Shown: positions 106-7,393 of the stretch, in pieces
Numbering within the stretch: the first letter of the stretch is position 1
How the letters are laid out: every line of letters starts with the position of its first letter
Origin: Flavobacterium psychrophilum
GTDB taxonomy: Bacteria > Bacteroidota > Bacteroidia > Flavobacteriales > Flavobacteriaceae
Assembly (NCBI GenBank): GCA_945897545.1
Contig: CAMDGJ010000049.1
Coordinates: 1 to 13,948 of the forward strand
Direction of reading: 5' to 3'
Length of the DNA stretch: 13,948 bases
Notes under the pieces: model-generated
What the model saw: only the letters and a program-made list of their open reading frames with translations
Databases searched by the model: none
Told to the model about the DNA's origin: nothing
Program-made: the position numbers and the translations under genes

Positions 106-1376
106 AAAACCGCGCTGATCAAAACAAGAGAGGTTTTTCAGTGCCCTCCGAAATTGATGGGTGTTAAACAAAAAGAACCCAAGAATAAATTTAAATTGTA
201 TGCCATTAGAGCCGAGGCTTATGTAGGATTAGGCGATTTGATTGTAGCCAAAAAAGACTTTGAAGCGGCTTTAGCATTCAATGCCGATTATGCTCCCGCT
301 CTGGAAGGTCTTGCGAAACTGGAAGGCAAGATAATTACAGATCGCCAAACTGATAAAACCCCACCAGAAATAGTTATATCAGAACCTGCTAATACTCGCG
401 GAATTAAAGTACTGTCCATTGCCGATGATGTTATGGTAAAAGGAACTGCGATTGATGCATCGGGTTTAAGATCAGTAACCATTAACGGAATAAAAGTTTA
501 TTCGAAAGAAACCGGAGATTTTTGGGGCAACGTGAATCTAGCCGAAGGACAAAATAAGATTTTGATAGTTGCGACGGATATGTCAGGTAACAAAACGGAA
601 AAAACGTTCGAAATCGAGAAAAATAATACTTCTAAAGCGGATGAAATTATAGCTGTTGCGAAAAAGGAAGGCAAAAATTACACCTTGCTGATTGCTAGTC
701 AGAATTATTCAGACATAAGTATTCCCTCGCTGGAGGAACCCATTCCAGATGCTGTCCGATTAAAGTTGGTGCTCAAAAATGTTTATAATTTTACAGACGA
801 AAACATTATCACTCTTTTCAATCCCGAAAGATCCGAATTACGACAAAAATTCCTTTTACTCAATGAAATATTGCAGCCTGAAGACAACTTAATAATCTTT
901 TACGCAGGTCATGGAATCTGGGTAGATAAGGAGAAAAAAATGGGTATTGGCTTCTGACTGATGCAAAGAGGAATGATGTCAATACTTGGGTTTCTAATAA
1001 AGAAGTCCTAGAAATGATTGCTGCGGTTCCTTCGAGACACACTTTACTGATCACCGATGCCTGTTTTTCGGGATCTGTTTTTAAAACCCGAAGCATCGGA
1101 GCTGATGCACCTTTAGCCATAAAAGAAATGGAAGAAAAAATTAGTCGAGTAGCTATTACATCTGGAAATGATACCGAAGTACCCGATGAAAGTGTTTTTA
1201 TGAAATACTTGGTGAAAGCATTAACAGAAAACAAGGATACGTATCTTACTGCTCAAAAACTATTTGTTACGCAAATCATTGAAGCCGTAATGACTGAGAG
1301 CAAAACTGAACCAAGGTACGGGACGCTGGAATTGGCAGGTCATGTTGGGGGCGACTTCATCTTTGCAAAAAAATAA
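106..1376 (+). pseudogene. 5'-truncated, frameshifted caspase-like (peptidase C14) gene, paralogue of the next gene
   Basis: This is a remnant of a second copy of the exported caspase-like gene that follows. Frame 1 is open from 106 (after a TAG at 103-105) and has TTG/ATG codons at 154/157. It encodes the end of a TPR-like region, an Ig-like segment and the first half of a C14 domain, including the His motif YAGHGIW. At an A7 run (934-940) the frame breaks and a TGA follows at 955-957. The -1 frame then continues through AKRNDVNTW and the Cys motif TDACFSG to the stop at 1374-1376. One more A would restore a continuous reading EKKNGYWLL, matching EKKGYWLM in the intact copy. About 330 N-terminal residues, including the signal peptide, are missing compared with the 723-aa paralogue, so even with frame repair the product would not be exported. 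The last ~95 residues are nearly identical to the paralogue; the upstream part is more diverged. The frameshift alone could be an assembly error, -1 ribosomal slippage or transcriptional slippage, but the missing 5' half makes pseudogene the best call. Confidence 0.85.
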
Positions 1377-1458: not shown

Positions 1459-3630
1459 ATGGATAAATTATACAGCTTGGTTTTAGTACTCCTTGTATTA
1501 TTTTCGGTTCATTCCACCGCACAAAAAACGCAATTGAGCAACAAAGAAAAGGCTATAATCTGGCCTTTACAAAAACAAGCGATGTTTTTATCGAGCAACG
1601 CAACATATGCACTTCAGGCTGGCAATACGGCGATTGCAGATTCGCTGATCAGAAAGTCCATTGAAGTGTATCCAACATTAGGCGTTTTTAGTTATGCTGA
1701 GTTACTTATGAGCCTTTCTGACATAACTGGCAGTAATGAAATACTAAAACTGGCCTACGCAAGAATTAAAAATGAACCGCAAAAACGTTTTATCATGCCG
1801 CTAGGTTTGATTAATGATTTCAGAAAAGTTACTGTTGCTCATATATTTTCGATGCAGGGAGCTAAGTTAAACCGGTCATTTGGAGACCTGAAAAGCACTT
1901 TGGAGGCCTACGAACATTTGTTCGAAAATAAGCTAGATTATAATGATGGATTCATCCGATTGCCTACTGGTAGCTCCACTGGCCCTAGTGATGACTATGT
2001 CCGTCCGCTAATTAAGGAAGAATTTTACAATCGTTTTGAATATTGGATCATAACAGAAAAATATGATGAGGCCTTAAACTTCATCGCTAAAAGGCCACAG
2101 AAGGGTTTTATCAAAAAGGAGGATTATGCAATGTATGAAACAGAAATTTACCTGCTTAAGAAAGACTTTACAAATGCCCGAAAAGCAGCAGAAGGGATTG
2201 ACCCTAAATTTAAGTTATACTACGACATGAAGATTAAACTCGAAGAAGGAGATCTTGCCACTACAAAAGATTTTTTTCAACAATATTATGCTTCAGCAAA
2301 AACAAATCCGGCGAATTCTTCCAGATTTTTATTTCAGGGAGCAGAATGTGAGTTTAAGCTGAAAAATTACACCGAAACGTTGTCATTGCTCGAGAAATCA
2401 ATAGCTCGTCGCGGCAAGTCCAATTTCAGTGGTGAAAGAGACCCCTTCCAATGGAAAATTTACACCTTGAAGGCAGATGCTTATGCGAGTTTAGGGGAAA
2501 AGGAAAAAGCCCGCACCAATTATGATATTGCCTTGCTGTATCATCCTACCTATAAACCGGCGATTGACGGAATCACTGCATTGGAAATCAAGTCAGAGAC
2601 AGACAAACTAACTGATAAAAGCGGCCCTGAAATCCTAATCCTAGTTCCGGCCACGAGAGGCTTTGACATTGTAGCTAAAAATGACATGCTGATAAAAGGA
2701 ATAGCGAAAGATCTTTCCGGCTTAAAGGAAGTATATATCAATGGTACGAAAATATATTCGCAAACAGATGGCAACTTTTGGGGCAATGCTGTAATAGGTG
2801 CTACTGATGAAAAGGTAATGATTAAAGCAATAGATATTATAGGAAACGTCACTGAAATGAGTCTGACTATCAAGCGTCCCGATAAGGTAAATAAACCCGA
2901 AATTGTTGCGCCAGTTACAACCGAAGGCAAAAATTACTGTCTTCTTGTTGCTGCTCAAAATTATGCGGACGAATCAATTCCCTCATTAGAAAATCCAATT
3001 GCCGATGCTATAAGGCTTAAAATGATTTTAAAATCGGATTACAATTTTGCTGATTCCAACGTAATCAATCTTTTCAATCCATCAAACGATGACCTCAAAA
3101 GACAGCTTCTGGAGATGACTAACACCATACAACCAGAAGACAACATCATCATTTTTTATGCCGGACACGGTATCTGGAAGGATAGCGAAAAGAAAGGATA
3201 TTGGCTGATGGCCAATGCCAAAAGAAACGATGTCAATACTTGGCTCCCCAACAAAGATGTCCTTAATCTCATTGCAAAAATCCCATCACGTCACACGCTA
3301 CTAATTACCGATGCCTGCTTTTCCGGCGGCGTTTTCAAGACAAGATCGATTGGAAAGAATGCACCCGCTGCTATTCAGTCCATGAATGAAAAAATTAGCC
3401 GTGTCGCTATAACATCAGGAAATGATACCGAAGTGCCCGACGAAAGCGTATTCATGAAATACCTAATAAAGGCCCTATCTGAAAACAAAGACAAATATCT
3501 TACTGCTCAAAAACTATTTGTTACAAATATCATTGAAGCTGTAATGACTGAGACCAAAACGGAACCTCGATATGGAACGCTGGAATTAGCGGGACATATT
3601 GGTGGGGATTATATATTTATTAAAAAATAG
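1459..3630 (+). CDS. Exported TPR / Ig-like / caspase-family (peptidase C14) protein
   Basis: A predicted secreted cysteine protease of the caspase/metacaspase clan, 723 aa. Residues 1-21 form a signal peptide (MDKLYSLVLVLLVLFSVHST followed by AQ, a plausible signal peptidase I site), which also supports the ATG at 1459. Residues ~25-385 are mainly helical with TPR-like pairs; the clearest is at ~290-385. Residues ~390-475 form a bacterial Ig-like beta domain (PEILILVPATRGFD, then DLSGLKEVYING). Residues ~490-723 are the caspase fold, opening GKNYCLLVAAQNY. The catalytic dyad is visible as His570 in FYAGHGIW and Cys620 in ITDACFSGG, with normal family spacing. Known: such dyads cleave after specific residues and are often activated by processing or by ligand-bound partner domains. 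Inferred: the protein acts in the periplasm or outside the cell, with TPR and Ig modules for partner binding. It leads a three-gene cassette (3-base and 11-base gaps) with a CHASE2 protein and a FecR-like protein. No TAnnTTTG box was found in the 82 bases upstream, so it may be transcribed with the preceding remnant. Substrate unknown. Confidence 0.9.
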   Translation: MDKLYSLVLVLLVLFSVHSTAQKTQLSNKEKAIIWPLQKQAMFLSSNATYALQAGNTAIADSLIRKSIEVYPTLGVFSYAELLMSLSDITGSNEILKLAYARIKNEPQKRFIMPLGLINDFRKVTVAHIFSMQGAKLNRSFGDLKSTLEAYEHLFENKLDYNDGFIRLPTGSSTGPSDDYVRPLIKEEFYNRFEYWIITEKYDEALNFIAKRPQKGFIKKEDYAMYETEIYLLKKDFTNARKAAEGIDPKFKLYYDMKIKLEEGDLATTKDFFQQYYASAKTNPANSSRFLFQGAECEFKLKNYTETLSLLEKSIARRGKSNFSGERDPFQWKIYTLKADAYASLGEKEKARTNYDIALLYHPTYKPAIDGITALEIKSETDKLTDKSGPEILILVPATRGFDIVAKNDMLIKGIAKDLSGLKEVYINGTKIYSQTDGNFWGNAVIGATDEKVMIKAIDIIGNVTEMSLTIKRPDKVNKPEIVAPVTTEGKNYCLLVAAQNYADESIPSLENPIADAIRLKMILKSDYNFADSNVINLFNPSNDDLKRQLLEMTNTIQPEDNIIIFYAGHGIWKDSEKKGYWLMANAKRNDVNTWLPNKDVLNLIAKIPSRHTLLITDACFSGGVFKTRSIGKNAPAAIQSMNEKISRVAITSGNDTEVPDESVFMKYLIKALSENKDKYLTAQKLFVTNIIEAVMTETKTEPRYGTLELAGHIGGDYIFIKK

Positions 3631-3633
3631 GGA

Positions 3634-4800
3634 ATGAGAATTAGAAATAAATGGTTCATCAGTTTTTTGCATGCATTTGTTTTGCTAATTTTAAGCCTGA
3701 TTTGGCTTCACACACCATTTACTTATGGTGACGAAAAGTTTCTCATTAAATGGACTTCTGTTGCAAAACGGATGGTGTTTCAACTGGATGATACTCTTCC
3801 GAAAGACAATTTTATCTTCATCAACCTTGCCTATGAGAAGGCTCTAATTCCTCTCGAAGACCATCTAGGCAATGAGGTAATCACGGATAGGGCAGCATTA
3901 GCTAAATTTTTTAAAATTCTGCAACAACACCCCTCAGCAGCAAAATTTACGATTTGTGATGTCTTTCTGAAGGGTACATCACCCTCTGACAGCTTACTTT
4001 CTAAAAGCATTACAGGAGTTCCTAATATTGTTTTTCCAACGCATCCTGATGATAACGATAAACCCGAAAAACTTGAAATCAAAGTCCCTTATGCCATGTC
4101 TAGCTATAAAAGTGCTGACGAAGGATTTGTGAAATTTACTTTATTATTGGAAGATGACTATAAGACCATACCCCTATATATGTATGAAAAACTGCAGCAA
4201 AGAAATTATAGTCATCATTGGGGTTTGTACTGGGATAATGGCGATCCCTGCTTAAATTCTGTTATTATTGACTATAAAATTAGCAATGACGAAGTGTTCC
4301 AAAATGATACCTACCCAGTTGTCAATCTGTCGGAGTTAATGCTGCTACCTGAGGAGTTAATCGTAAAAGAATTTTTACAAGACAGAATTATCGTTATGGG
4401 CGATTTTGTAAACGATAAACATAAAACTTCCTTTGGTGTTATGCCAGGAAGCCTCATTCTACTCAACGTATATCTCTCCCTGATGGATGGGGCTCATTTA
4501 ATCAGCCTTGGCTGGCTGTTGTTTATGATTGTCGCATTTACCCTTTATTCACGGATTATTATTTTTAGCTGGAAAATGGCTGGTTTAAGAAAATCTACAA
4601 AGTGGTTTCTAAATTTGTTGAAGAGTGCTACTTTTCTTGCGATAATTTCAGTTTGTTCCTATTTTTTATTTAATATTGGTATCCAAGTATTGTTTTTAAC
4701 CATTTATACCGGAATTTTACTATTTATCATCAGATTATGGAAAGAAAAAGCGCCCATACACAAAATGAACTATTGGCTCACTTATTTATCAGAAAAATAA
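3634..4800 (+). CDS. CHASE2-type sensor-like membrane protein without output domain
   Basis: A 388-aa inner-membrane protein with the layout of CHASE2 sensors. There is one N-terminal membrane segment (~8-26), a periplasmic domain (~27-287) and three membrane helices (~288-306, 329-345, 346-366). The periplasmic part shows CHASE2-like elements: a strand DNFIFINLAYE near the start, the helix TDRAALAKFFKILQQ, a TICDVFLKG strand, and a C-terminal block at ~237-287 (VVNLSELML, then DRIIVMGDF, DKHKTSFG, MPGSLILLN). Known: CHASE2 is an extracytoplasmic sensory domain usually followed by three helices and a cytoplasmic kinase, cyclase or diguanylate cyclase. Here only a ~22-residue basic/aromatic tail follows the last helix, so no enzyme output is encoded. 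The start lies 3 bases after the caspase stop, so the two are very probably co-translated. Inferred role: membrane anchor or signal receptor for the caspase-like and FecR-like partners. The CHASE2 assignment rests on reading motifs by eye. Confidence 0.75.
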   Translation: MRIRNKWFISFLHAFVLLILSLIWLHTPFTYGDEKFLIKWTSVAKRMVFQLDDTLPKDNFIFINLAYEKALIPLEDHLGNEVITDRAALAKFFKILQQHPSAAKFTICDVFLKGTSPSDSLLSKSITGVPNIVFPTHPDDNDKPEKLEIKVPYAMSSYKSADEGFVKFTLLLEDDYKTIPLYMYEKLQQRNYSHHWGLYWDNGDPCLNSVIIDYKISNDEVFQNDTYPVVNLSELMLLPEELIVKEFLQDRIIVMGDFVNDKHKTSFGVMPGSLILLNVYLSLMDGAHLISLGWLLFMIVAFTLYSRIIIFSWKMAGLRKSTKWFLNLLKSATFLAIISVCSYFLFNIGIQVLFLTIYTGILLFIIRLWKEKAPIHKMNYWLTYLSEK

Positions 4801-4811
4801 ATCCTAACGAT

Positions 4812-5612
4812 ATGAAATACTTTTTTACAATTTTTGTTTTTATATTTTGCATTTCTGCAACAGTTTTAAAAACTGAAAAATACTATGTAACTTTTGTAAA
4901 AGGAAAAGTGGTATTTGCCATGACAAAAAAACAATTGAAGGTCGGTGATGTACTTTTATCAGAGGACCGTCTGGTTTTTGTTGAAAAAACAGCTAAAGTT
5001 TCATGTATAAATCCAACAAAAGGGAGGTTTGACATCAATCCGAACCTAATAAAAGAGAAAAGTAGTGAGCTCTTTACCCTCTTAAAGTCTAGCTTAGTTC
5101 CTTCAATCAATACTTATAAACTTAGTACCCGTTCGGTATTTTTTGAGGGTAATGATCCCTATTCCTATTTTGCCAGTCCAGAAACGCAGCACAGGATTCT
5201 GATAGTTGAACAAAAACCCCTATTGATAAAATCTACTTTCAAAATGGATGAAAGTAATTTTTTCTTTGTCCAATTTATGGCAGAAGAAAAACTTCAGACA
5301 CGAAAAATTCAACATAATGGGCAGCAACTTCTATTTTCAAAATCAAATTTCCTAAATGATTCTGGCCAGATTCAGGAAAAGGTTTCAATTTGTTATCAAA
5401 CTAGTGAAAATGGTAAAGCCAAATCATCAATAATCACAGAGTTTTCGCCAGTATTAGCAACATCCGAAGAGATTACTGATCAAGTTAATTTGATAAAAAG
5501 TATTTCACAACAAAAAGACAGCAAAAAACTAAAATTAGAAATTTTCAATCATTTATTTGTTAATTACGGAAAAATTGGAGCAGAAGAATTGTCGATTTAT
5601 ACAGGTTTTTAA
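4812..5612 (+). CDS. Exported protein with FecR-like N-terminal segment
   Basis: A 266-aa protein beginning with a hydrophobic signal sequence (MKYFFTIFVFIFCISATVL). The frame is open back to 4737, but that stretch overlaps the CHASE2 gene; the ATG at 4812, 11 bases after the CHASE2 stop, puts the signal peptide at the N-terminus and is the likely start. Residues ~24-78 look like a FecR-type beta module: YYVTFVKGKV, then LKVGDVLLSEDRLVF, and a later G-x-F-x-I-x-PN. FecR domains are periplasmic modules best known from anti-sigma regulators, but also found next to CHASE2 proteins. Residues ~85-266 are not recognised; the section ~115-215 is beta-rich and the end is helical. There is no DNA-binding or sigma-factor-binding region. 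As third gene of the cassette it probably interacts with the periplasmic CHASE2 domain or the caspase-like protein. The FecR link is tentative. Confidence 0.65.
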   Translation: MKYFFTIFVFIFCISATVLKTEKYYVTFVKGKVVFAMTKKQLKVGDVLLSEDRLVFVEKTAKVSCINPTKGRFDINPNLIKEKSSELFTLLKSSLVPSINTYKLSTRSVFFEGNDPYSYFASPETQHRILIVEQKPLLIKSTFKMDESNFFFVQFMAEEKLQTRKIQHNGQQLLFSKSNFLNDSGQIQEKVSICYQTSENGKAKSSIITEFSPVLATSEEITDQVNLIKSISQQKDSKKLKLEIFNHLFVNYGKIGAEELSIYTGF

Positions 5613-5854: not shown

Positions 5855-5873
5855 TCGTGGGGAGAGCAGGATT
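5855..5873. repeat. 19-bp copy of the tRNA-Tyr 3' end (att-like direct repeat)
   Basis: TCGTGGGGAGAGCAGGATT is identical to 5967-5985, which covers the 3' terminus of the tRNA-Tyr gene plus 3 flanking bases. The copies are 112 bp apart and in the same orientation, and similarity stops sharply after GGATT. Duplicated tRNA 3' ends are typical of attachment sites of tyrosine-recombinase elements, but no integrase gene is present in the window, so integration is an inference; a partial tRNA duplication is the alternative. Confidence 0.75.
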
Positions 5874-5947: not shown

Positions 5948-5969
5948 TCTTTATTGAACTATTTATTCG

Positions 5970-6050
5970 TGGGGAGAGCAGGATTCGAACCTGCGAAGTT
6001 CACACAGCAGATTTACAGTCTGCCCTCGTTGGCCGCTTGAGTATCTCCCC
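5970..6050 (-). tRNA. tRNA-Tyr (anticodon GTA)
   Basis: Read on the - strand, the acceptor stem GGGGAGA (5' end at 6050) pairs with TCTCCCC, with discriminator A at 5970. The anticodon arm is GCAGA-CTGTAAA-TCTGC, with GTA at 6014-6016. The T arm is GCAGG-TTCGAAT-CCTGC. The extended variable arm and 81-base length fit the class II structure of bacterial tRNA-Tyr. CCA is not encoded (the next bases are CGA) and must be added after transcription. A Bacteroidetes-type promoter lies upstream and a terminator downstream, so it appears to be a single-gene unit. Confidence 0.97.
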
Positions 6051-6176: not shown

Positions 6177-6205
6177 AAAAAAATCTCCACTAGGGAGATT
6201 TTTTT
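6177..6205 (-). terminator. Terminator of the thioredoxin-like gene
   Basis: TCTCC/GGAGA around the loop ACTAG is flanked by seven A and seven T residues, giving a 12-bp stem. On the - strand it lies about 18 bases after the gene's stop at 6224-6226, with a T7 run on the exit side. The symmetry allows function in both directions. Confidence 0.85.
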
Positions 6206-6223
6206 ATTGTATAAACAAGAATA

Positions 6224-7393
6224 TTATTTTGATAAGAGTTCCAGTATTTTAGCTCTAAGTTCATCACCTCTTAAATCTTTTGCAACTACTTTTCCTGAGG
6301 CATCAAGTATAAAAGTTGCAGGAATAGATTTCACTTCATATTGAATCGCAATGGGTTCTTCCCAATATTTTAAATGTGAAACTTGAGTCCAAGACAACTT
6401 ATCTTTTGCAATAGCTTCTTTCCATTTTTTACGGTCCTTATCTAAAGATACGCCTACAATATTTAACCCTTTCGAATGAAACTCATTGTAAATAGCAACT
6501 ACGTTTGGGTTTTCGGCTCTACAAGGACCACACCATGAAGCCCAAAAATCAACAATTGTTACTTTTCCTAGACTTTCCTTTAAGGAAATTATTTTTCCTT
6601 CAGGGTTTGGAGCTGAAAAATCTGAACTTCAGTTCGCGTTACCAGGAGCTGGTGCCGCACCTGCTGGTGGAGTGGTGCCAACTGAAGGCATCTTAGATTC
6701 TTTAATTTTTAATTCTATAGCTTTTCCAGGTTTTGAACTTTTTAATGAAGCGTCAAGACTAGCAAATAATTTTTCTACTTTTTTAGAATCAACAGCTGGG
6801 TCATTCATCATTCCTTGAATAATTAGGGCACTTATAAATGATTTAGGATGAGTTTCTGCGTAGGTTGTGTACTTAGTTTTTGTAGTTTCTCCAACATTTT
6901 TTTGAATTTCACCAAATTCTCTCATTAATCTATTGATTACAACAGTGTCTTTGGTTTGTTGTGCAGTATTCATCAACGGAGTATTTTTTGTTTGAAAATC
7001 AACTAAACTCTTTTGAATTTTTTCTAGTTCTTCATTAAATTTTACAAATTCGTCATTATTGTAAGTCCCAGAAATTTTAGACTTATTGATGCTATCTTTG
7101 TTAATTTCTATATTGATATCACCGTTTTCTAAAATAAATGGTATTTTTCCTTGTACTCCTTCTATTTGCAACATATGAAACGATGGCTCTACAGTTTTTC
7201 CTTTAATTTCGAATTTACCATTCTCAACTTTTACTGTATCAACAGCAACCAATCCGCCCATGGCATCTTGTGTTTCCATAATTATGGTCTTACCATTATC
7301 AACTCCTTTAGCAGTTCCTGAAATAGTGTATTTGTCTTTGGTACATGAAACTAAAAATACAGTAGCAGTAAGTAATAAAATTATTTTTTTCAT
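6224..7393 (-). pseudogene. DUF4369-TlpA/thioredoxin lipoprotein, split by in-frame TGA
   Basis: The full reading frame is 389 codons on the - strand with one internal stop, TGA at 6629-6631 (codon 255). The first 254 codons encode a lipoprotein signal (MKKIILLLTATVFLVSC, lipobox LVSC), a beta-rich DUF4369-like domain (~20-110: YTISGTAKGVDNGKTIIME, then GKFEIKGK), a helical section (~115-235) and a Pro/Ala linker. After the stop, in the same frame, 134 codons encode a complete TlpA-like thioredoxin domain with VDFWASWCGPC and the cis-Pro segment KSIPATFI. Known: intact relatives are membrane-anchored periplasmic disulfide reductases. As it stands, only an N-terminal lipoprotein without redox site is made; the second part contains no Met codon, so restart is unlikely. 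A change of GGA to TGA would explain the stop, because Gly-Ser before DF is common at this domain boundary. A sequencing error is possible, and selenocysteine is unlikely. Promoter and terminator are intact, suggesting a recent mutation. Confidence 0.85.

What the first reader, a model, noticed from the sequence alone, without database searches (positions are those of the whole stretch)
1459..5612. Periplasmic caspase - CHASE2 - FecR-like cassette
Three tightly spaced genes (gaps of 3 and 11 bases) encode an exported caspase-like protease with both catalytic residues (His570, Cys620), a CHASE2-type membrane protein and an exported FecR-like protein. All sensing and proteolytic parts appear to face the periplasm. 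CHASE2 and FecR modules are known to occur together with cytoplasmic cyclases or kinases; here the only enzyme is a periplasmic caspase-like protease. That would be a signalling or stress-response system with a proteolytic output outside the cytoplasm. I am not aware of a characterised system of this form.
Basis: partly seen in the sequence, partly recalled or inferred. Interest (0 to 1): 0.75.

Follow-up and report, generated by a model that had tools for sequence, protein, structure and literature searches.

The report
Exported caspase–CHASE2 operon in Bacteroidota
Some Bacteroidota carry a small operon that appears to send caspase-type proteases out of the cytoplasm beside a membrane sensor protein with no inner signalling part, which suggests proteolytic signalling or execution in the cell envelope; what it cuts and why is unknown.

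Summary
Three packed genes (gaps 3 and 11 bp) encode an exported TPR–Ig-like–caspase protein with His570/Cys620 (Peptidase_C14), a CHASE2 membrane protein with a ~22-residue cytoplasmic tail, and an exported ~266-aa protein. FecR fails: 0 of 22 family members match Pfam FecR; profile comparison with true FecR proteins gives 1%. The cassette recurs: 8 of 8 loci with the close CHASE2 subfamily have the caspase directly upstream and the third gene directly downstream. In sampled Bacteroidia, 9 of 48 CHASE2 loci have a caspase within 5 kb; by one detection method 6 against 0.34 expected. New here: relatives carry 1–9 tandem caspase genes; their TPR halves diverge (mean 21% identity in one array) while protease halves stay alike (68%); in 6 of 6 loci with upstream flank the array starts with an exported papain-family (C1) protein. 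Best reading: an envelope-facing caspase module with variable recognition and constant protease parts, docked to or gated by CHASE2. Trigger, substrate and interaction are inferred. Not found in the papers searched.

The parts
1459..3630 (+). Exported caspase-family protein, 723 aa: signal peptide (about 1-22), TPR-type helical region (about 24-384), Ig-like beta domain (about 386-480), caspase domain (about 485-723) with His570 and Cys620
   Evidence: Pfam C14 1.3e-12; dyad invariant in A3; signal-peptide heuristic; AlphaFold model helical 28-384, beta 392-470, alpha/beta after 490, low confidence near and after Cys620; Foldseek to TPR proteins and MALT1 caspase domain
3634..4800 (+). CHASE2 membrane protein, 388 aa: TM at about 7-25, outward domain of about 240-265 residues, three TM helices, C-tail of 22 residues; no cytoplasmic domain
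   Evidence: PF05226 29.8 bits over cut-off 26.3; hydropathy and charges
4812..5612 (+). ORF3: exported 266-aa protein, N-terminal small beta domain, second beta domain, C-terminal helices; no Pfam family
   Evidence: AlphaFold pLDDT 83; directly downstream of CHASE2 in 8 of 8 close loci
154..1376 (+). Second, broken caspase copy: 5'-truncated, two frames (154-957 and 1014-1376)
   Evidence: A3 profile hits 1e-106 and 6.8e-82 on the two pieces taken separately

Best explanation
An envelope caspase cassette. SHOWN by sequence: a protease of the caspase fold with intact dyad and a signal-peptide-like start, a CHASE2 membrane protein with a large outward domain and no cytoplasmic output domain, and an exported partner, encoded as one tight unit that recurs in the same order; in relatives with tandem caspase copies whose TPR halves diverge while the protease halves stay alike, headed by an exported C1-family protein. 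INFERRED: the TPR half of each caspase recognises a partner, substrate or damage signal; the CHASE2 outward domain together with ORF3 forms an inner-membrane platform that binds and gates the caspases; once triggered, the caspases cut envelope proteins (possibly ORF3, CHASE2 or each other), so that the output is proteolysis outside the cytoplasm. The C1 protein may mature or inactivate the caspases. Which event triggers it and what is cut are not known.
For: C14 and CHASE2 matches over curated cut-offs. Eight of eight loci with the close CHASE2 subfamily (window; G001, G146, G421, G435, G635, G657, G686, all with profile E 1.6e-180 or lower) are caspase-CHASE2-ORF3 with gaps of about -4 to +14 bases. 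Of all 18 genomes with any match to the CHASE2 subfamily profile, 14 have a caspase ORF within four genes. In the 395-genome Bacteroidia sample the two genomes with a caspase closer than E 1e-100 to the window's (G001, G146, at most two candidates scored per genome) are the two with the close CHASE2. Caspase within 5 kb of 9 of 48 CHASE2 loci in that sample; with one detection method 6 against 0.34 expected, Poisson 1.5e-6. CHASE2 C-tail 22 residues in the window; median 26 over 59 CHASE2 ORFs. Arrays of 9, 4, 3, 2, 2 and 1 caspase genes; mean identity 21% in the TPR region, 49% Ig-like, 68% caspase over 21 pairs of seven G146 paralogues. The dyad is kept in 27 of 30 family ORFs; the three others are two ORFs cut by a fetched stretch and the first piece of the window's broken copy. 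C1 protein at the head of the array in 6 of 6 close loci with flank.
Against: No test of activity, interaction, trigger or substrate was possible. Gene proximity shows linked function, not which protein acts on which. Exported caspases are common in Bacteroidia, and 39 of 48 sampled CHASE2 loci have no caspase within 5 kb, so CHASE2 does not need one; four genomes with matches to the subfamily profile (G150, G348, G683, G701) lack a caspase beside that gene. The caspase model is of low confidence at the active site (mean pLDDT 58 for residues 611-620, 30 for 621-630), so catalytic geometry is not shown. Low TPR identity could be relaxed drift after duplication.
Confidence: 0.5

Rival explanations
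1. CHASE2 plus its exported partner is a general Bacteroidota envelope receptor that signals inward through a separately encoded cytoplasmic partner; caspases are upstream regulatory (site-1-like) proteases that cut the partner or CHASE2, so the real output is cytoplasmic.
For: 34 of 48 sampled Bacteroidia CHASE2 loci have an adjacent exported partner, only 9 have a caspase within 5 kb; CHASE2/FecR pairs elsewhere feed kinases or cyclases (PMC5192318, PMC9239204, passages read).
Against: The cassette itself encodes no kinase or cyclase and the CHASE2 tail is ~22 residues. Genes further out were listed but not searched for signalling families, so a nearby partner is not excluded.
Confidence: 0.25
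2. A conflict or self/non-self system: tandem exported caspases with diversified TPR receptors recognise foreign envelope threats (phage, toxins, competitors) and kill or damage the cell.
For: Variable-TPR/constant-caspase tandem arrays of up to nine genes; patchy spread (7 of 395, 5 of 251 and 12 of 350 genomes with any match to the CHASE2 subfamily; overlapping samples).
Against: Of the three window proteins only the caspase matches PADLOC, weakly (generic caspase model, 23.8 bits); flanking genes were not scanned for defence genes. No match of the window's CHASE2 protein in plasmid records. Positive selection was not tested.
Confidence: 0.15
3. Envelope housekeeping: exported TPR-proteases for protein turnover or maturation, with CHASE2 as a plain anchor.
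For: Signal-peptide-like caspases are common in Bacteroidia and weaker C1-family relatives occur elsewhere in some of the genomes.
Against: Constant gene order with overlapping genes in several loci beside a sensor-type protein; amplification with divergent N-termini.
Confidence: 0.1

Closest known systems
Cyanobacterial metacaspase-CHASE2 fusion (Trichodesmium erythraeum IMS101; PMC3501461 and PMC2853523, passages read)
   Same: Caspase-family domain joined to a CHASE2 receptor with one TM before and three after it
   Different: One fused protein with the caspase predicted in the cytoplasm (PMC3501461); here separate genes and a caspase with a signal-peptide-like start; no third gene, array or C1 protein in the passages read
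CHASE2 histidine kinase with LysM-FecR protein, BiofilmReg operon (PMC5192318, passages read)
   Same: CHASE2 protein with the same TM plan next to an exported partner gene
   Different: Cytoplasmic kinase and response regulator are the output; partner is a FecR-domain protein; no caspase in the passages read
Campylobacterota CHASE2 adenylate cyclase - FecR - TPR - phosphodiesterase cluster (PMC9239204, passages read)
   Same: CHASE2, FecR-type and TPR proteins in one cluster
   Different: cAMP output in the cytoplasm; no caspase in the passages read
Bacterial metacaspase operons and exported caspase homologues in general (PMC3501461 and PMC6426788, passages read)
   Same: N-terminal TM or signal peptide in some metacaspases, TPR as a common partner domain, and multi-metacaspase operons including Bacteroidetes are on record
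   Different: At most three metacaspases per operon in that survey; no CHASE2 partner gene mentioned in the passages read
LapD-LapG (PMC3032553, outline with short abstract seen; details recalled)
   Same: Principle: an inner-membrane receptor controls a periplasmic cysteine protease
   Different: Unrelated proteins; LapD is driven by c-di-GMP from inside; the CHASE2 protein here has no cytoplasmic domain
EACC1-type and TRADD-N caspase systems (PMC8195603, passages read; NCBIfam NF047832)
   Same: Best NCBIfam match of the caspase domain (E 1.8e-17)
   Different: Score 63.5 far below cut-off 140; an EACC1 partner was not searched for

Membership tests
Peptidase C14 (caspase) family | Profile match over curated cut-off | tested here: met
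   48.3 bits against 21.4
Peptidase C14 (caspase) family | His-Cys dyad in GHG and DxCxSG-type motifs | tested here: met
   H570, C620 invariant in A3; kept in 27 of 30 family ORFs, the other three cut or broken across it (two genes are in that list twice)
Peptidase C14 (caspase) family | Proteolytic activity | not testable with these tools
   No assay
CHASE2 | Profile match over curated cut-off | tested here: met
   29.8 bits against 26.3 for the window's protein; the match is modest: the close relatives in G001 and G146 did not reach E 1e-5 in the genome search with PF05226
CHASE2 | One TM before and three after the outward domain | tested here: met
   TM 7-25, 292-310, 328-346, 348-366, plus a hydrophobic stretch 266-284 at the domain's end
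CHASE2 receptors with enzymatic output | C-terminal cytoplasmic kinase, cyclase or similar | tested here: not met
   C-tail of 22 residues, no output domain in Pfam
FecR (PF04773) | Profile match over curated cut-off | tested here: not met
   0 of 22 members at E up to 10; hhalign to 20 proteins from PF04773 places 1%
FecR (PF04773) | Same fold as FecR | tested here: inconclusive
   No significant structural match of any kind for ORF3
CHASE2-adjacent exported partner family of Bacteroidota (A4/F profile) | Sequence homology of the mature protein | tested here: inconclusive
   hhalign 90% with signal peptides but 21% without; beyond the eight close loci the mature profile reaches only two diverged CHASE2 neighbours, 3e-7 and 2e-4
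EACC1-associated caspase (NF047832) | Score over curated cut-off | tested here: not met
   63.5 against 140

The most novel reading that the evidence does not exclude
A periplasmic counterpart of receptor-caspase systems: tandem exported caspases with diversified TPR recognition halves and a constant protease half, tethered to a CHASE2 membrane platform and headed by a second exported cysteine protease, giving a modular proteolytic surveillance and execution system that works wholly outside the cytoplasm.
Probability: 0.25. Interest if true: 0.85.

Novelty: new variant of a known kind. Interest (0 to 1): 0.6.

Why it matters
Bacterial caspase homologues with N-terminal membrane or signal segments are on record (PMC3501461, passages), but I found no described system that says what such outward-facing caspases work with. 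A conserved operon that pairs them with a sensor-type membrane protein lacking any inner output, and that multiplies them with diversified recognition halves, would be a new place and wiring for caspase action. It also makes the open question of what stand-alone CHASE2 proteins do testable, because here a candidate enzyme is encoded next to them.

Tried and rejected
FecR identity of ORF3: rejected on Pfam and on profile comparison with 20 proteins from PF04773 places in the same genomes. None of the 36 PF04773 places in 45 genomes lies within 60 kb of a CHASE2 place (compared by eye). Of 17 other CHASE2-adjacent exported proteins, FecR is not among the 25 of 32 Pfam families shown.

Chance neighbourhood: rejected by the counts. 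Export as a special mark of this cassette: rejected.

Mobile element: no match of the window's CHASE2 protein in 72,556 plasmid records; viral contigs and phage records were not searched.

Whole-genome search of the window's own assembly: none is held. The single genome-contig scan was made with one protein and reached one close relative. Paper searches gave nothing on the point beyond PMC6426788 (passages) and PMC3032553.
Full report
WHAT IS THERE. Three ORFs on the + strand at 1459-3630, 3634-4800 and 4812-5612 are separated by 3 and 11 bases. Gene 1 (723 aa) matches Peptidase_C14 (E 1.3e-12, over cut-off) at residues 492-691, with sub-threshold TPR matches. Its best NCBIfam match is the EACC1-type caspase domain, far below cut-off. 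In the PDB by sequence the best match is metacaspase-4 (6w8s, E 0.029, motifs with the His and Cys aligned); the other rows are at E 0.27 or worse. The first piece of the broken upstream copy matches Glucodextran_B (E 4.1e-11) in the domain between TPR and caspase; I call it Ig-like. The AlphaFold model (7-row alignment, mean pLDDT 67) shows a long helical N-terminal part, a beta domain and an alpha/beta domain; it is poor from about Cys620 on (mean 58 for 611-620, 30 for 621-630), so it shows architecture and not catalytic geometry. Foldseek with it finds TPR superhelices and human MALT1 caspase domain (3v4o, E 8.8e-5, TM-score 0.60 by target length).

Gene 2 (388 aa) matches CHASE2 over its cut-off. 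Hydropathy gives a first TM at 7-25, an outward stretch of 240 residues, a hydrophobic stretch at 266-284 that I read as the end of the CHASE2 domain, TMs at 292-310, 328-346 and 348-366 and a positively charged 22-residue tail. I read this as N-in, C-in with four TMs, the plan described for CHASE2. No output domain follows. The Pfam match is modest: its close relatives in G001 and G146 did not reach E 1e-5 with PF05226 in the genome search.

Gene 3 (266 aa from 4812) has a signal-peptide-like start by eye and no Pfam match; none of 22 family members matches FecR. The model is good (pLDDT 83) but has no significant match among solved structures.

RECURRENCE. Relatives of the CHASE2 protein were sought with the subfamily profile in 395 Bacteroidia genomes (7 matched), 251 genomes of the family of G146 (5 matched) and 350 of its order (12 matched); these samples overlap, and 18 distinct genomes matched. 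Of the 18, 14 have a caspase ORF within four genes of the match; G150, G348, G683 and G701 do not. Seven genomes match at E 1.6e-180 or lower: G001, G146, G421, G435, G635, G657, G686. With the window these are eight loci, and all eight have a caspase directly upstream and an ORF3 homologue directly downstream, with gaps from -4 to about +14 bases (some starts adjusted to the profile). A more diverged locus, G655, has the same order. By equal contig length, G146 is probably Flavihumibacter sp. R14, G435 Solitalea sp. MAHUQ-68 and G635 Pedobacter ginsengisoli; this is an inference. In the other direction, caspases closer than E 1e-100 to the window's were found in 2 of 395 genomes, G001 and G146, the two that carry the close CHASE2; 54 further genomes gave weaker matches, most of them to the caspase domain alone. 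That search scored at most two candidates per genome.

WIDER CONTEXT. Pfam CHASE2 finds 41 places in 39 of the same 395 genomes; seven more places come from the subfamily profile, giving 48 loci, all fetched with flanks. Of these 48, 34 have an adjacent gene of one of the exported-partner profiles, 9 have a caspase-domain ORF within 5 kb, 6 have both and 11 have neither. The partner profiles were built from such neighbours, but they found no ORF more than two genes from a CHASE2 gene in these loci. Of 59 CHASE2 ORFs the median tail after the last predicted TM is 26 residues and four exceed 60. For chance, Pfam C14 gives 82 places in the 45 genomes searched. Six CHASE2 loci (G038, G079, G288, G291, G330, G362) have such a place within 5 kb by the listed coordinates, against 0.34 expected (Poisson 1.5e-6). 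With the more sensitive profile it is 9 against 0.35 (1.5e-10), but there the background was mostly counted with the less sensitive method, so the first figure is the fairer one. Kinship among genomes is not corrected for. So a stand-alone CHASE2 protein with an exported partner is the common unit in this sample, and caspases join it in a minority.

IS GENE 3 FecR-LIKE? Only by position and a short motif (G-x-V ... L-x-x-x-D, read by eye). Profile comparison of its family with other CHASE2 partners gives 90% with signal peptides but 21% without them; with 20 proteins from PF04773 places it gives 1%. Among 752 ORFs the mature-protein profile finds the eight close loci, two diverged CHASE2 neighbours (G655, 3e-7; G537, 2e-4) and nothing else. 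I call it a CHASE2 partner of unknown family.

The caspase gene is amplified: nine tandem genes in G146, four in G421, three in G686, two each in G635 and G657, one in G435 (G001's contig ends inside its caspase gene). Among seven full-length G146 paralogues (two of the nine left out: a 1018-aa variant and one split between two fetched stretches), mean identity over 21 pairs is 21% (14-47) in the TPR region, 49% (37-61) in the Ig-like domain and 68% (42-84) in the caspase domain. Over 17 proteins (136 pairs) from six loci and the window the means are 28%, 54% and 76%. The dyad is kept in 27 of 30 family ORFs, in which two genes are listed twice; the three others are two ORFs cut by a fetched stretch and the first piece of the window's broken copy. 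At the head of the array lies an exported 474-480-aa protein with Peptidase_C1 and DUF4384 domains in 6 of 6 close loci with upstream flank; four of the six were run against Pfam, the other two found by profile. No such protein is found in the 2.4-Mb assembly G001, nor in the diverged G655 and G537; the window starts too late to tell. The window's own upstream region, 154-1376, is a broken second caspase copy, 5'-truncated and shifted between frames.

EXPORT. A rough heuristic gives a signal-peptide-like start in 31 of 32 caspase ORFs within four genes of a CHASE2 gene and not cut at their 5' end; the exception is the broken copy in the window. For caspases picked elsewhere (31 places, mostly one per genome) it is 27 of 36 ORFs, or 21 of 30 without the G146 array, which was in that set. 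So outward caspases are usual in Bacteroidia, and the cassette is special for its gene company.

MECHANISM. Shown: domains, topology by hydropathy, gene order, recurrence, copy-number and divergence pattern. Inferred: that the TPR halves recognise something, that CHASE2 with ORF3 holds or gates the caspases, and that envelope proteins are cut. LapD-LapG is a precedent for a membrane receptor controlling a periplasmic cysteine protease (PMC3032553; outline with short abstract seen, details recalled), without any homology. The strongest rival is that CHASE2 and its partner signal inward through a protein encoded elsewhere and the caspase is a regulatory protease; flanking genes were not searched for signalling or defence families.

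LITERATURE. No paper in the held library has CHASE2, caspase and FecR together. Six have CHASE2 and metacaspase; passages of three were read. Three have CHASE2 and FecR; passages of two were read. CHASE2 with periplasmic, protease and Bacteroidetes: none. Metacaspase with Pedobacter: none. DUF4384 with caspase: three, by title and abstract orthocaspase or cyanobacterial surveys. The closest known case, the Trichodesmium fusion, has the caspase predicted in the cytoplasm. PMC3501461 already reports metacaspases with N-terminal TM helices that may be signal peptides and operons with up to three metacaspases, Bacteroidetes among them, so neither export nor tandem caspases as such are new. The library lacks most subscription journals, so 'not in print' is limited to these searches.

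On recounting I changed the dyad count to 27 of 30, the loci in the 17-protein comparison to six, the E-value limit of the close subfamily to 1.6e-180, and the observation verdict to 'partly confirmed' for the FecR label; I added the four genomes without a caspase.

Noticed in passing
window 154-1376: Broken second caspase copy, 5'-truncated and in two frames, directly upstream; fits the tandem arrays of relatives.
   Followed up: partly
window 5857-5873 and 5969-5985: Exact 17-base repeat of the tRNA-Tyr 3' end, starts 112 bases apart (mean expected by chance 0.01); looks like a leftover attachment site beside the cassette.
   Followed up: partly
window about 53-98: Inverted repeat followed by a T run just before the broken caspase copy, terminator-like by eye; not reported by the scan, whose loop limit is 8.
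   Followed up: no
window 6200-7393, minus strand: A lipoprotein-like ORF (6629-7393) is followed by a stretch that reads like a thioredoxin (TlpA-type) domain outside that ORF; possible disrupted gene. Seen by eye only.
   Followed up: no
L158, L161, L015 (G146): Nine tandem caspase genes headed by a C1-family protein.
   Followed up: yes
L058 3840-4745: Thioredoxin-like protein (Pfam) between caspases and a CHASE2-partner pair in G038.
   Followed up: no
L021, L022, L023, L024, L129: A second, diverged CHASE2 type (457-485 aa) has a caspase nearby in all five and a different short gene (252-288 aa) directly upstream in four; in L023 that gene was not resolved.
   Followed up: partly
L066, L067, L070, L071, L075, L081, L084, L091: In small (1.5-2.3 Mb) genomes a 237-238-aa protein overlaps the start of CHASE2 by 4 bases, a constant but different neighbour.
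   Followed up: no
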